This document shows, piece by piece, positions 3,545-8,624 of a stretch of DNA of 55,103 nucleotides. A program made the translations under genes and the position numbers. The number at the start of each line of letters is the position of its first letter. The first letter of the stretch is position 1. Source of the stretch: Gemmatimonadota bacterium (GTDB lineage: Bacteria; Gemmatimonadota; Gemmatimonadetes; Gemmatimonadales; Gemmatimonadaceae); NCBI GenBank assembly GCA_021298835.1, contig JAJTHG010000028.1:1-55103 (forward strand), in the 5' to 3' direction. Below the pieces are notes generated by a model that did not search any database, was not told the DNA's origin, and saw nothing but the letters and a program-made list of their open reading frames with translations.

Positions 3545-3792
3545 ACGCGCCCCCCTCCGACACTATCAGCGCTGTCTATGGATGCGACCCAACCTTCGGC
3601 GCGGGTAGAAAATCATTATCCGGTGTCAGGGATGCCATCACGCAGAAGGCGAAGCCACCGGACCGGCGTGTGCATTCCCCCTTCACGACACGCCGAATCG
3701 AACGCGAGGCGCGAGCGACTCGTCTGGGGTGAGGTGCATCACGTGACGGGGGCGGGGGTGGGGGCGGGCGGCTTGGCATGGAGGTGGGCACC
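3545..3792. other. Non-coding stretch between the divergent lipoprotein gene and the metF leader
   Basis: This stretch separates the divergently read lipoprotein gene from the metF promoter candidate. It includes the lipoprotein ribosome binding site at 3550-3558. No reading frame here looks like a protein and no tRNA-like fold was seen. The G-rich tract around 3750-3770 is low complexity. The lipoprotein promoter presumably lies here, but I could not pick out convincing boxes. Confidence 0.5.
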
Positions 3793-3821
3793 TTGCGCAC
3801 GGTGATGGTGTCTTCTATCCT
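3793..3821 (+). promoter_or_regulatory. Candidate sigma-70-like promoter of the metF-metH leader
   Basis: TTGCGC at 3793-3798 and TATCCT at 3816-3821 are separated by 17 bases. Transcription would start near 3828, just ahead of the riboswitch candidate at 3846. Matches to the consensus are only partial, so the position is an inference from spacing and context. Confidence 0.35.
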
Positions 3822-3835
3822 TCCATCCGGATAGA
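3814..3835. repeat. 7-bp perfect inverted repeat over the candidate -10 region
   Basis: TCTATCC (3814-3820) and GGATAGA (3829-3835) are perfect inverted copies around an 8-base spacer. The left arm overlaps the candidate -10 box. It could be an operator or a small hairpin at the 5' end of the transcript; no regulator can be named. Confidence 0.35.
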
Positions 3836-3845
3836 CAAATGAATC

Positions 3846-3894
3846 CGAGGCGATTTCCGGGCAAATTGCGGCCTCGTTAAACAACCCGCTAAAG
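3846..3894 (+). promoter_or_regulatory. SAM-II riboswitch candidate
   Basis: The segment matches the SAM-II aptamer in sequence and fold. Helix P1 pairs CGAGGC (3846-3851) with GCCTCG (3871-3876). The conserved GATTT follows P1 (3852-3856), TTGC sits at 3866-3869, GTTAAA at 3876-3881, and the 3' GCTAAAG at 3888-3894. A pseudoknot can form between CGGG (3858-3861) in the loop and CCCG (3885-3888). SAM-II elements bind S-adenosylmethionine and usually precede methionine or SAM biosynthesis genes; here the downstream genes are metF and metH. The terminator that follows suggests control by transcription termination. Confidence 0.85.
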
Positions 3895-3901
3895 CGCCAG
3901 C

Positions 3902-3933
3902 CCCGGCGTCGCCCACGACGACCGGGATTTTTT
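3902..3933 (+). terminator. Intrinsic terminator between the riboswitch and metF
   Basis: A GC-rich hairpin pairs CCCGGCGTCG (3902-3911) with the segment 3916-3926 around the loop CCCA. There is one bulged A (3921). Six T residues follow at 3928-3933. It starts only 7 bases after the aptamer and ends 23 bases before the metF start, which fits the expression platform of a riboswitch. How ligand binding would change its folding is not evident. Confidence 0.75.
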
Positions 3934-3956
3934 CGTCCGTCCGGCCCCGATCCACC

Positions 3957-4859
3957 ATGGCCAAGCGCTCCGCTCAGCCCTTCCGCGTCTCGTTCGAGTT
4001 CTTCCCGCCCAGGACGGCGGACATGGAAGACCATCTCTGGCGCGCCATCCAGCGGCTCGCCCCGTTGGGGCCGGCGTTCGTGTCCGTGACCTACGGCGCC
4101 GGTGGCGGCACCCGGGAGCGCACCCACAGCACCGTGCGGCGCATTCTGGCCGAGACGGCCGTGAAGCCGGCTGCCCACCTCACCTGCGTCGCGGCCACGC
4201 AGGACGAAGTGCTGGCCGTCGCCGACGACTACTGGGCCGCCGGGGTCCGACATCTGGTCGCGCTGCGCGGCGATCCGCCCGGCGGCACCGCCGACTCGGC
4301 CTACACCCCGCATCCCGGGGGCTTCGCGTTCGCCGCGGACCTCGTCGCCGGCCTCCGCGCCCGCCACGACTTCGAGGTCTCCGTCGCCGCCTACCCCGAG
4401 GGCCATCCCCAGGCGCCGTCGCTCAAGGCCGACCTCGACAACCTCAAGCGCAAGGTGGACGCCGGTGCCACGCGCGCGATCACGCAGTTCTTCTTCGACA
4501 ACAGCGCCTACCTGCGCTTCGTCGAGCGCGCGCAGCGCGCGGGGATCACGGTGCCGATCGTCCCCGGCATCATGCCGGTGACCAACTTCGCGCAGGCGGC
4601 GAAGTTCGCGAAGCAGTGCGGCGCCACCGTCCCGAACACGATGGCGTGGCTCTTCGAGGGCCTCGACGACGACGCCGACACCCGGCGCCTCGTCGCGGCG
4701 ACGGCGTGCGCCGAGCAGGTGCAGCAGTTGGTGAAGGAGGGAGTGGACGAGTTCCACTTCTACACGCTCAACCGCGCCGACCTCACCTACGCGATCTGCC
4801 ACATCCTGGGGCTGCGGCCCGTCGAGGTGCCGGTGCCCGCGGCGCCGGCGGGGGCCTGA
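3957..4859 (+). CDS. metF: Methylenetetrahydrofolate reductase
   Basis: This 300-residue cytoplasmic flavoenzyme reduces 5,10-methylene-THF to 5-methyl-THF, the methyl donor used by the next gene, metH. Family motifs are in order: SFEFFPP (12-18, with the catalytic Glu14), VTYGAGGGT, HLTC, ALRGDPP, AAYPEGH, ITQFFFD, GIMPV and FHFYTLNR. The length is normal for bacterial MetF and the TIM barrel appears complete. No clear Shine-Dalgarno sequence precedes ATG 3957. It lies directly behind the SAM-II candidate and terminator, and metH begins 3 bases after its stop, so the two form a SAM-controlled operon. Confidence 0.97.
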   Translation: MAKRSAQPFRVSFEFFPPRTADMEDHLWRAIQRLAPLGPAFVSVTYGAGGGTRERTHSTVRRILAETAVKPAAHLTCVAATQDEVLAVADDYWAAGVRHLVALRGDPPGGTADSAYTPHPGGFAFAADLVAGLRARHDFEVSVAAYPEGHPQAPSLKADLDNLKRKVDAGATRAITQFFFDNSAYLRFVERAQRAGITVPIVPGIMPVTNFAQAAKFAKQCGATVPNTMAWLFEGLDDDADTRRLVAATACAEQVQQLVKEGVDEFHFYTLNRADLTYAICHILGLRPVEVPVPAAPAGA

Positions 4860-4862
4860 GCG

Positions 4863-7800
4863 ATGAGCGGCCGGTCCCACGCGCATCCCACGCTCGCGCT
4901 CGACGCGCTGCCGCCCCGCTGGACGGAGGGGCCGGCCTCTCCCCTCTCGCGCGCCGAGCGGCTCGGGCGGCTGGAGGGCGAGCTGGCGCGGCGGATCCTC
5001 GTCCTCGACGGCGCGATGGGGACGATGATCCAGCAGTACCGGCTCACCGAGGCCGAGTACCGCGGCACCCGCTTCGCCGGGTGGGCCCGCGACCTCCGGG
5101 GCAACAACGACCTCCTCACGCTCACGCAGGCCGACCTCATCCGGGGGATCCACGCGGCGTACCTCGAGGCCGGCGCGGACATCCTCGAGACCAACACGTT
5201 CAACTCGACGGCCATCGCGATGGCCGACTACGGGATGGAGTCGCTGGCCTACGAGCTGAACGTCGCCGGCGCGCGCAACGCGCGCGTGGTGGCGGACGCG
5301 TTCGAGGCGCTGACGCCCGACCGGCCGCGTTACGTGGCCGGGATCCTCGGCCCCACGAACCGGACGGCGAGCATCTCGCCGGACGTCAACGACCCCGGGG
5401 CGCGCAACGTCACGTGGGCCGAGCTGGTGGCCGCGTACGCCGACGCCACGAACGGCCTGCTCGACGGCCGCGCCGACCTGCTGATGGTCGAGACCATCTT
5501 CGACACGCTCAACGCCAAGGCGGCGCTGTTCGCGATCGAGCAGGTCTTCGAGTCGCGCGGCGAGCGGGTGCCGGTGATGATCTCGGGCACGATCACCGAC
5601 GCGTCGGGGCGGACGCTCTCGGGGCAGACGACCGAGGCGTTCTGGCACTCGGTGATGCACGCGCGGCCGCTCTCGGTGGGGCTCAACTGCGCGCTTGGCG
5701 CCAAGGAACTGCGCGGCTACGTGCAGGAGCTGTCGCGGGTGGCGGACTGCCACGTCTCGGCCCACCCCAACGCGGGGCTGCCCAACGAGATGGGGGGCTA
5801 CGACGAGACGCCGGACATCACCTCGGCGATCCTGCGCGAGTTCGCGGGCTCGGGGCTGGTGAACATCGTCGGCGGCTGCTGCGGCACGACGCCGGCGCAC
5901 ATCCGCGCGATCGCCGAGGCGGTGGCCGGACTGCCGCCGCGCGCGCGACCCGAGGTGCCGAGGCGGCTGCGGCTCTCCGGTCTCGAGCCGGTGGTGATCG
6001 GCCCCGACACGAACTTCGTCAACATCGGGGAACGCACGAACGTCACCGGCTCGGCCAGGTTCGCGAAGCTGATCCTGAACGGCGAGTACGAGGCCGCGCT
6101 CGAGGTCGCCCGTCAGCAGGTGGAGGCGGGGGCGCAGCTGATCGACATCAACATGGACGAAGGGATGCTCGACGCCGTCGAGGCGATGACGACCTTCCTG
6201 CGGCTGGTGGCGTCGGAGCCGTCCATCGCGCGCGTGCCGATCGTGCTCGACTCGTCGAAGTGGTCGGTGCTCGAGGCGGGGCTGCAGCAGGTCCAGGGCA
6301 AGGGGATCGTCAACTCGATCTCGCTCAAGGAGGGCGAGGCCGAGTTCCTGCGCCAGGCGCGGCTCGTGCGGCGCTACGGGGCGGCGGTGATCGTGATGGC
6401 CTTCGACGAGCAGGGCCAGGCCGACTCGGCCGAACGCAAGGTGGCGATCTGCACCCGGGCCTACCGGCTGCTGGTGGACGTCGTGGGCTTCCCACCCGAG
6501 GACGTGATCTTCGACCCGAACATCTTCGCGATCGCGACGGGCATCGAGGAGCACGACGGCTACGCGGTGGCGTTCATCGAGGCGTGCCGGCGCATCAGGG
6601 CCGAGCTGCCGCACGCGTCGATCAGCGGCGGGGTGTCGAACGTCTCGTTCAGCTTCCGGGGGAACAACCCGGTGCGGGAGGCGATCCACAGCGTCTTCCT
6701 GTACCACGCGGTGCAGGCGGGGCTCACGATGGGCATCGTGAACGCCGGCCAGCTGGTGATCCACGAGGACATCCCGGCGGAGCTGCGCGAGCGGGTCGAG
6801 GACATCGTGCTCAACCGCCGGGGCGACGCGACCGAGCGGCTGCTGGCGGTCGCCGACCGGTATAAGGGGGAGGTGGCGCAGAAGGCGGCGGATCTGTCGT
6901 GGCGCGCAGCGCCGGTGCACGAGCGGCTGGCCCACGCGCTGGTACACGGCATCGCGGACTTCGTCGTCGAGGACACCGAGGAAGCCCGCAAGCTGGCCGA
7001 GCGGCCGATCGAGGTCATCGAGGGCCCGCTGATGGCGGGGATGAACGTGGTGGGCGACCTCTTCGGCGCCGGGAAGATGTTCCTGCCGCAGGTGGTGAAG
7101 AGCGCGCGCGTGATGAAGCGCGCGGTGGCGCACCTGATCCCCTATATCGAGGCGGAGAAGTCGGCCGGCGCCAAGGCCAAGGGCCGGATTCTCATGGCCA
7201 CGGTCAAGGGGGACGTCCACGACATCGGCAAGAACATCGTGGGAGTGGTGCTGCAGTGCAACAACTTCGAGGTGCTCGACCTCGGGGTGATGGTGTCGGC
7301 GCAGAAGATCCTCGAGACGGCGAAGCGCGAAGGGGTGGACATGATCGGCCTCTCCGGGCTCATCACGCCGTCGCTCGAGGAGATGAGCTTCGTGGCGAGC
7401 GAGATGGAGCGCGAGGGCCTGCGCATCCCGCTGCTCATCGGGGGCGCCACGACGAGCCGGGCGCACACGGCGCTCAAGATCGAGCCCCACTATTCGGGCC
7501 CGGTCGTGCACGTGCTCGACGCGTCGCGCGCCGTGGGGGTGGCAGGGTCGCTGGTGAGCGAGGGGCTGCGCGAGGACTTCGTGCGCGACGTGAAGGCGGA
7601 GTACGCCGACATCCGCCGCAACCGGGCCGAGCGGCGAACGGCCGAGCCGCGCGCGACGCTGGCCGAGGCGCGGGCGAACAAGGTGCCGGTGGACTGGGCG
7701 TCGTACGCGCCGCCGGCACCGTCGTTCACCGGGGTGCGGACGTTCGAGTCGTGGGACCTGGCCGACCTCGTGGGGCGCATCGACTGGACGCCGTTCTTCC

Positions 7801-8624
7801 AGACATGGGAACTGGCGGGATCGTACCCCGCCATCCTCGACGACCCGGTCGTCGGCGAGCAGGCGCGGGTGCTCAAGGCCGACGCCGACCGGATGCTGGC
7901 GCAGGTGGTGGCCGGTCGCTGGCTGACGGCGAAGGCGGTGGTGGGCTTCTGGCCGGCGGCGCAGGTGGAGGACGACGACATCGCGGTGTACGCCGACGCG
8001 TCGCGGGCGCAGGAACTCGCGCGCTTCCACACGCTGCGGCAGCAGCAGAAGAAGGCGGACCGGCCGAATCTGGCGCTCGCCGACTTCGTCGCGCCGGCGT
8101 CGAGCGGGGTGCCCGACTACGTGGGGGCCTTCGCCGTCACGGCGGGGGTGGGGCTCGACGAGCGCGTCGCGGCGTACGAGGCGCAGCAGGATGTGTACAA
8201 CAGCATCCTGCTCAAGGCGCTGGCGGACCGGCTCGCCGAGGCCTTTGCCGAGCGGCTGCACGAGGAAGTGCGTCGCACGCTGTGGGGCTACGCGCCGGAC
8301 GAAGCGCTCGACAACCGTGCGCTCATCCGGGAGCAGTACCGCGGCATCCGGCCGGCCCCGGGCTATCCGGCGTGCCCGGACCACACGGAGAAGCGGACGA
8401 TCTTCTCGCTGCTCGGGGTGACGGAGCGGATCGGCGTGACGCTGACCGAGAGCTTCGCGATGGTGCCGACCGCGGCGGTCAGCGGGTACTACTTCGCGCA
8501 TCCCGCGTCGCAGTACTTCGGCACGGGGAAGATCGGGGCGGACCAGGTGGCGGACTACGCGGCGCGGAAGGGACTGCCGGAGCGCGAGGTGCGGCGGTGG
8601 CTGGCGCCGGTACTGCACGAGTGA
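4863..8624 (+). CDS. metH: Cobalamin-dependent methionine synthase
   Basis: At 1253 residues it is full length for MetH, which transfers methyl from 5-methyl-THF through cobalamin to homocysteine. All four modules are present. The homocysteine-binding barrel has zinc ligands Cys276, Cys339 and Cys340. The pterin-binding barrel begins near residue 380 ([14 protein letters not shown]). A cobalamin cap is followed by the B12 domain with DVHDIGKN, His786 being the lower cobalt ligand. The SAM-binding reactivation domain ends with [12 protein letters not shown] and [12 protein letters not shown]. It is cotranscribed with metF, so the pathway is B12-dependent and probably repressed by SAM. The cells must make or import cobalamin. 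Confidence 0.97.

What the first reader, a model, noticed from the sequence alone, without database searches (positions are those of the whole stretch)
3846..3933. SAM-II riboswitch with a terminator controls metF-metH
Seen: P1 pairing, GATTT, TTGC, GTTAAA, GCTAAAG and a loop-to-tail CGGG/CCCG pseudoknot, followed 7 bases later by a hairpin and six Ts. Known: SAM-II aptamers were described mainly in Proteobacteria and Bacteroidetes, upstream of methionine/SAM genes. Inferred: here, in a probable Gemmatimonadota genome, it controls a metF-metH operon by transcription attenuation, although many SAM-II elements are thought to act on translation.
Basis: partly seen in the sequence, partly recalled or inferred. 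Interest (0 to 1): 0.75.

Follow-up and report, generated by a model that had tools for sequence, protein, structure and literature searches.

The report
SAM-II attenuator under a SahR-like operator
In a bacterium that is likely one of the Gemmatimonadota, two methionine-synthesis genes (metF and metH) carry a SAM-II riboswitch sequence and a terminator-like hairpin, which would likely stop transcription when S-adenosylmethionine is plentiful, and just upstream lies a DNA site predicted to bind a repressor that would likely sense the used-up form of that molecule, so that together they would read both halves of the cell's methylation cycle.

Summary
The RNA is real: RF00521 (SAM-II) matches 3837-3912 at 43.3 bits (cut-off 36), the only gathering-level Rfam hit in the window, followed by a hairpin (3902-3926), the window's only run of five or more Ts, and metF-metH. 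Two corrections: the conserved pseudoknot is GGC 3860-3862 : GCC 3896-3898, not CGGG:CCCG; and terminators are ordinary for SAM-II. SAM-II is also common in this phylum (262 of 395 genomes), so the riboswitch is a new member of a known kind.

The surprise lies upstream: an inverted repeat (3817-3832) found in 26 of 30 metF-first SAM-II leaders and 0 of 115 others. Its 17-mer occurs twice in the held genome: here, and before an ArsR-methyltransferase (SahR-like) gene followed by ahcY. Proteobacterial relatives of metF carry such a regulator gene next door (66 of 68) and no SAM-II (0 of 68); so do 5 of 42 Gemmatimonadota loci. The other 37 have SAM-II and no such neighbour. A regulator gene and a riboswitch thus replace each other (direction unknown), and dual SAM/SAH control is the best reading. 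Binding of either ligand or of the protein is untested.

The parts
3793..3821 (+). candidate promoter: TTGCGC 3793-3798, 17-base spacer, TATCCT 3816-3821; start of transcription predicted near 3828
   Evidence: read by eye; weak (one search found no promoter-like site); the sahR-like gene of the same genome has TTGACC, 17 bases, TATCCT before the same repeat (read by eye)
3817..3832 (.). inverted repeat ATCC-N8-GGAT, predicted operator of a SahR-like repressor
   Evidence: pattern in 26 of 30 metF-first SAM-II leaders, 0 of 61 metH-first, 0 of 54 others, 1 of 6000 shuffles; 17-mer only here and before the sahR-like gene
3837..3912 (+). SAM-II aptamer, RF00521 match
   Evidence: 43.3 bits, gathering score 36
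3846..3851 (+). P1 5' strand CGAGGC (pairs with 3871-3876)
   Evidence: its A-U pair is U-A in 131 of 135 distinct aptamers, a change on both sides
3871..3876 (+). P1 3' strand GCCTCG
3860..3862 (+). P2b 5' strand GGC in the P1 loop
3888..3894 (+). conserved GCTAAAG core of SAM-II
3896..3898 (+). P2b 3' strand GCC
3894..3909 (+). local antiterminator candidate: GCGCC 3894-3898 with GGCGT 3905-3909 (-7.2 kcal/mol); excludes both P2b and the terminator
   Evidence: 24 of 25 metF-first leaders with a lax terminator call make at least 3 such pairs, 16.7 expected from shuffles; no signal in the swap test
3849..3913 (+). long-range antiterminator candidate: 3849-3854 with 3908-3913 and 3857-3861 with 3902-3906
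   Evidence: minimum-energy fold of transcripts 3828 to 3913-3922; 2% of shuffles as good here, at most 5% in 13 of 119 loci
3902..3933 (+). terminator-like hairpin 3902-3926 and T6 3928-3933
   Evidence: -16.8 kcal/mol, only run of five or more Ts in the window
3957..4859 (+). metF, methylenetetrahydrofolate reductase, 300 aa
   Evidence: TIGR00676 346 bits, cut-off 293.7; PF02219
4863..8624 (+). metH, B12-dependent methionine synthase, 1253 aa
   Evidence: TIGR02082 1718.6 bits, cut-off 1010.85

Best explanation
A SAM-II aptamer and a terminator-like hairpin lie upstream of metF-metH, behind an inverted repeat; SAM binding would likely lock the aptamer and let the terminator form, while the repeat is predicted to be the operator of a SahR-like, likely SAH-responsive repressor encoded next to ahcY. 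Shown by calls: the aptamer match, the hairpin and T-tract, the repeat, its second exact copy before the sahR-like gene and ahcY, and the distribution of these over relatives. Inferred: the promoter, SAM binding, the switch between antiterminator and terminator, repressor binding, SAH as its effector, and the joint logic (on when SAM is low and SAH is high). At the RNA level the tail GCC (3896-3898) would pair with the loop when SAM is bound; without SAM the same bases, or the P1 strand and loop, would pair with the terminator's 5' arm and delay it. The complete leader folds into the terminator even without ligand (-37.1 kcal/mol to 3928-3934; the antiterminator fold of the shorter transcript has -27.2), so the control would have to be kinetic.
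For: RF00521 above gathering. P2b covariation. Terminators behind SAM-II in relatives: strict score 59 of 145 loci, against 0 of 137 stretches 700-830 bases further on and 1 of 145 shuffles; lax rule 119 of 145, against 19 of 407 stretches further downstream and 486 of 1450 shuffles. Only T-run of the window. Repeat in 26 of 30 metF-first leaders and 0 of 115 other SAM-II leaders. The 17-mer occurs twice in the held genome; the second copy stands 5 bases before the start of a protein with an ArsR-type HTH and a methyltransferase domain, followed by AhcY (TIGR00936, 632.3 bits, cut-off 497.6). Of the 30 best sahR-like loci, 29 carry the repeat pattern within 180 bases upstream and 30 are followed by an AhcY-like frame (read from the translations). 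Leyn 2014 (passages): SahR is SAH-responsive and ArsR-family, its core regulon is sahR, ahcY, metH, metH2, metF, metK, and gamma-proteobacterial SahR and SamR motifs share ATC-10 nt-GAT, a spacing that the repeat has. Exchange: the regulator gene stands next to metF in 66 of 68 proteobacterial and 5 of 42 Gemmatimonadota loci, all 71 without SAM-II; 37 of 42 have SAM-II and no such neighbour.
Against: No binding or transcription data. The consensus scan finds neither a promoter nor a terminator here, the strict score misses the window's own hairpin, and a third of shuffles pass the lax rule. Neither antiterminator candidate shows coevolution: swap ranks 0.48-0.60 where 0.5 is chance, and 0.53. 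Four of 30 metF-first leaders lack the repeat pattern. The window's repeat differs from the commonest form at two bases; matches with up to three mismatches are expected 0.26 times by chance in a window of this size, and 21 of 100 shuffles had one. The sahR-like protein is 32-41% identical to the metF-adjacent regulators of Proteobacteria (66 loci) and matches no family model of a SahR, so the name and the ligand are inferred.
Confidence: 0.7

Rival explanations
1. Riboswitch alone: a SAM-II attenuator controls metF-metH, and the repeat is a leftover or serves another protein.
For: The attenuator is complete by itself; 4 of 30 metF-first SAM-II leaders do without the repeat pattern, 3 of them from one genus-level group.
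Against: The repeat is nearly constant while flanking bases vary and is confined to metF-first leaders; it precedes 29 of 30 sahR-like genes.
Confidence: 0.18
2. The terminator is constitutive and the aptamer acts on RNA stability or makes a small RNA, as reported in part for S. meliloti metA.
For: In S. meliloti metA the terminator after SAM-II is not predicted to depend on SAM (PMC9373788); the complete leader here folds into the terminator without ligand.
Against: S. meliloti metZ SAM-II is predicted to control termination; the GCC strand of P2b lies three bases before the terminator arm, so the two could communicate.
Confidence: 0.08
3. Translational SAM-II: the pseudoknot hides the ribosome site.
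For: Six metH-first loci of a neighbouring family have an ATG a few bases behind the aptamer and no terminator call.
Against: In the window 58 bases and the terminator-like hairpin lie between P2b and the start codon.
Confidence: 0.03
4. Degenerate aptamer that no longer binds SAM.
For: 43.3 bits is moderate; the best relatives score about 61.
Against: All core motifs are intact; P1 carries a change on both sides that keeps the pair.
Confidence: 0.03

Closest known systems
SAM-II (SAM_alpha, RF00521) riboswitches with terminators, e.g. S. meliloti metZ
   Same: aptamer class, core motifs, terminator just behind the aptamer, methionine genes
   Different: phylum Gemmatimonadota; metF-metH rather than metX, metY or metA (genes as given in PMC4239095 passages); a SahR-type repeat upstream
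SahR regulon (ArsR family, SAH-responsive; PMC4239095 passages)
   Same: ArsR-type HTH plus methyltransferase-fold regulator (the fold of SahR itself is recalled, not from a call); repeat with ATC-10-GAT spacing; targets sahR, ahcY, metF, metH
   Different: here the regulator gene sits with ahcY, not with metF, and one predicted target also has a SAM-II leader; the published alpha and delta motifs are 20-bp palindromes that I could not compare letter by letter
Tandem and bi-mechanism SAM riboswitches (SAM-II/SAM-V; PMC9481103 passages)
   Same: two layers of control on one message
   Different: the second layer here is a predicted DNA operator with a probably different ligand (SAH), not a second RNA

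Membership tests
SAM-II riboswitch (RF00521) | covariance score at or above gathering | tested here: met
   43.3 against 36 bits
SAM-II riboswitch (RF00521) | P1 stem with GATTT, TTGC and GCTAAA core | tested here: met
SAM-II riboswitch (RF00521) | P2 pseudoknot between P1 loop and 3' tail | tested here: met
   GGC:GCC, complete in 104 of 135 distinct aptamers and covarying
SAM-II riboswitch (RF00521) | binds SAM and discriminates against SAH | not testable with these tools
   needs in-line probing
SAM-II riboswitch (RF00521) | upstream of methionine/SAM genes | tested here: met
   metF-metH
Intrinsic terminator | G+C-rich hairpin followed by a U tract | tested here: met
   -16.8 kcal/mol and T6 with one A between, lax rule; not called by two stricter scans
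SahR regulator | ArsR-type HTH joined to a methyltransferase-like domain (second part recalled) | tested here: met
   PF01022 and PF08241 in the 328-aa protein; no SahR family model among the 25 best NCBIfam matches shown
SahR regulator | palindromic operator before sahR and SAM-cycle genes | tested here: inconclusive
   repeat before the sahR-like gene with ahcY and before metF, with the ATC-10 nt-GAT spacing; the full 20-bp published motif was not available
SahR regulator | SAH as effector | not testable with these tools
   inferred from ahcY linkage

The most novel reading that the evidence does not exclude
The metF-metH leader is a two-input methylation gauge: a SahR-type repressor reads SAH on the DNA and a SAM-II attenuator reads SAM on the nascent RNA, and this pairing arose when an operon shared with Alphaproteobacteria exchanged its linked regulator gene for a riboswitch leader and came under the host's own ahcY-linked repressor.
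Probability: 0.5. Interest if true: 0.7.

Novelty: new variant of a known kind. Interest (0 to 1): 0.55.

Why it matters
In the papers seen here SAM-II and SahR are described on different genes. If both act on one leader, this is a natural circuit that reads the SAM/SAH balance, with a simple genetic test. The comparison also shows a regulator gene and a riboswitch replacing each other in front of the same operon, which makes riboswitch gain or loss traceable. It would extend SAM-II to a phylum for which three text searches listed no paper that is about it (four listed papers were not opened).

Tried and rejected

Coevolution of an antiterminator: two candidates, both plausible by folding, neither supported by swaps. 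The first pair lists that I forced (P1 and antiterminator) were off and held non-pairs; those lines are not used, and P1 was redone.

Alternative start near 3844 (TAGACA 3832-3837 as -10, by comparison with relatives): kept as an alternative; refolding from 3844 gives the same two folds.

Direction of the metF-metH transfer: the quick MetF tree (67 rows; 27 of 67 proteobacterial rows kept) separates the groups, but its root rests on branches of length 5, so direction is open.

SAM-I and SAH riboswitches in the own genome: none found; the SAH search rang in no control either, so that absence is weak.

Rows dropped: of 154 loci (L001-L154), 3 gave no aptamer by pattern (L096, L133, L142), 2 gave two, and 8 copies with identical aptamer and flanks were removed, leaving 145. 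These loci are the better-scoring matches of capped lists, not a random draw; the pattern fixes GATTT, TTGC and GCTAAA but none of the P2b columns. Genes of the 54 loci without metF or metH were grouped by similarity only; four proteins were named by profile. The 42 Gemmatimonadota metF loci (30 from the genome search, the window's included, and 12 named ones) hold some genomes twice. The 68 other loci (L197-L264) are labelled Proteobacteria, mostly Alphaproteobacteria; the two labelled Gammaproteobacteria (L222, L234) are the two without the adjacent regulator gene.

Papers: PMC9373788 outline with abstract, section 5 and part 1 of 2 of section 11; PMC2258182, PMC1273637, PMC4239095, PMC6152003, PMC9481103, PMC8877191 and PMC5343134 passages only; all others search listings.

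Full report
What is there. The RF00521 model matches window 3837-3912 (+) with 43.3 bits against a gathering score of 36; it is the only gathering-level Rfam match in the window and the only SAM-II found in the 3.46 Mb held genome, which is 91.6% complete. P1 is 3846-3851/3871-3876. A hairpin 3902-3926 (-16.8 kcal/mol) is followed by T6 at 3928-3933, the only run of five or more Ts on either strand of this 72.8% G+C window. metF (3957-4859) and metH (4863-8624) follow, three bases apart.

Correction of the pseudoknot. On 137 distinct rows 89% of the cells of the GGC:GCC register are paired, against a permutation mean of 78% (largest of 1000: 82%) and 18-49% when slid. Its outer pair covaries: G-C 70, C-G 28, A-U 7, G-U 6, the rest unpaired. 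The window's P1 carries A-U where 131 of 135 carry U-A.

Terminator. A strict score calls a terminator in 59 of 145 loci, in 0 of 137 stretches 700-830 bases further on and in 1 of 145 shuffles, but misses the window's own. A lax rule of 145, the window included, 19 of 407 stretches further downstream and 486 of 1450 shuffles. The general scanner called nothing in 3560-4000. So terminators are well supported in the group, and in the window by the hairpin and the single T-run. The whole leader folds no better than shuffles (19 of 200 as good).

Switch. Nascent folds from 3828 put 3849-3861 against 3902-3913 once 3913 is out, and change to the terminator by 3925. Shuffling the terminator arm gives as good a duplex in 2% of cases here, but in the relatives only 13 of 119 loci reach 5%, with about 6 expected. 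A local alternative pairs 3894-3898 with 3905-3909 (-7.2 kcal/mol); at least three such pairs occur in 24 of 25 metF-first leaders with a lax terminator call (16.7 expected), but in 93 of 119 overall (73.4 expected) and without coevolution in swaps. Which one acts is open.

Distribution. 262 of 395 Gemmatimonadota genomes (drawn evenly from a larger group) and 165 of 179 of the family match RF00521 at E 0.001 or less; 221 of 395 and 145 of 179 exceed the gathering score. Of 145 loci, 91 stand before metF or metH (30 metF-first, 61 metH-first). The phylum name rests on the labels of named MetF relatives: the first 12 of 80 rows are Gemmatimonadota.

Two operons, one riboswitch. Among metF-first loci MetF and MetH are 72% and 73% identical to the window's (medians; ranges 68-100 and 64-100, the window included). 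In metH-first loci the medians are 34-37% for MetH (range 29-74) and 24-26% for MetF where found. The next MetF relatives are proteobacterial, 62-70%. None of those 68 loci has SAM-II by pattern in 350 bases upstream; Rfam found none in the 11 of the 68 that I gave it, nor in the 5 Gemmatimonadota loci without a pattern match.

The repeat. In 26 of 30 metF-first SAM-II leaders the 75 bases before the aptamer core hold ATCC-N8-GGAT (mostly ATCCGTTCATCCGGAT); 0 of 61 metH-first and 0 of 54 other leaders do; 1 of 6000 shuffles does. The window copy is ATCCTTCCATCCGGAT, 3817-3832; a match with up to three mismatches is expected 0.26 times in such a window. In the held genome the extended 17-mer occurs twice, and a search with two mismatches adds one further place, against none for the reversed control pattern. 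The second exact copy stands 5 bases before a 328-aa protein with an ArsR-type HTH and a methyltransferase domain, followed by AhcY. Of the 30 best-scoring relatives of that gene (the window genome's included), 29 have the repeat pattern upstream and 30 are followed by an AhcY-like frame (only the window genome's was scored by a profile). Leyn 2014 (passages) describes SahR as SAH-responsive and ArsR-family, with core targets including sahR, ahcY, metH, metF and metK, a 20-bp palindrome as motif, and ATC-10 nt-GAT as the consensus that gamma-proteobacterial SahR shares with SamR.

Exchange of regulators. Next to metF an ArsR-methyltransferase gene is present in 66 of 68 proteobacterial loci (32-41% identical to the window genome's protein) and in 5 of 42 Gemmatimonadota loci; none of these 71 has SAM-II or the repeat by pattern. 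The other 37 Gemmatimonadota loci have SAM-II and no such neighbour; 32 of these also have the repeat. In the MetF tree four SAM-II-free Gemmatimonadota rows branch nearest the outgroup, but the root is unsafe, so whether SAM-II was gained or lost with the change cannot be said.

Comparison with print. Corbino 2005 (passages) and Barrick and Breaker 2007 (passages) report terminators for SAM-II. S. meliloti metZ SAM-II is predicted to terminate upon SAM binding, and the metA and metZ promoters themselves respond to SAM conditions by a route called unknown (PMC9373788: abstract, section 5, first part of section 11). Ensifer aridi work names SahR and SAM riboswitches as parts of methionine-cycle control still to be investigated (PMC8877191 passages). 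Searches for SAM-II or riboswitch with Gemmatimonad* (0, 1 and 3 papers, none opened) and for SahR, a SAH repressor or dual control with riboswitches listed no title or abstract that reports this pairing. In the passages I read, Leyn 2014 gives SAM_alpha and SahR different target genes. Rfam's own member list could not be consulted, and subscription journals are mostly not held.

Verdict. The riboswitch is a new member of a known kind. Its pairing with a SahR-type repeat, and the exchange between a regulator gene and a riboswitch, is a new variant worth testing.

Noticed in passing
L002 (- strand), L022, L025, L029, L032 downstream of SAM-II: SAM-II stands before panB-like genes (3-methyl-2-oxobutanoate hydroxymethyltransferase, which like MetF uses 5,10-methylene-tetrahydrofolate: recalled); one of the five was scored and passes the panB cut-off.
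   Followed up: partly
L002, aptamers at about 1797 (+) and about 1560 (-): Two SAM-II copies on opposite strands about 240 bases apart, facing panB and an ATP-grasp-like gene (named by eye).
   Followed up: no
L063, L122 downstream of SAM-II: SAM-II before metK-like genes; one protein scored 495.1 bits against a cut-off of 309.4.
   Followed up: partly
L007, L008, L011, L014, L016, L137: An ATG lies a few bases behind the aptamer and no terminator is called: probably translational SAM-II before metH in a neighbouring family of the same phylum.
   Followed up: partly
L147, positions 415 and 5180: Two SAM-II copies on one strand about 4.8 kb apart.
   Followed up: no
G000:C24:3577-3592: Third near match to the repeat in the genome, ATCCGTTCGACCGGAT; context not read.
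   Followed up: no
aptamer loop base -6 against tail base -2 (window 3860 and 3886): A second covarying contact of the same loop base (108 of 135 paired), possibly a ligand-free alternative or a triple.
   Followed up: no
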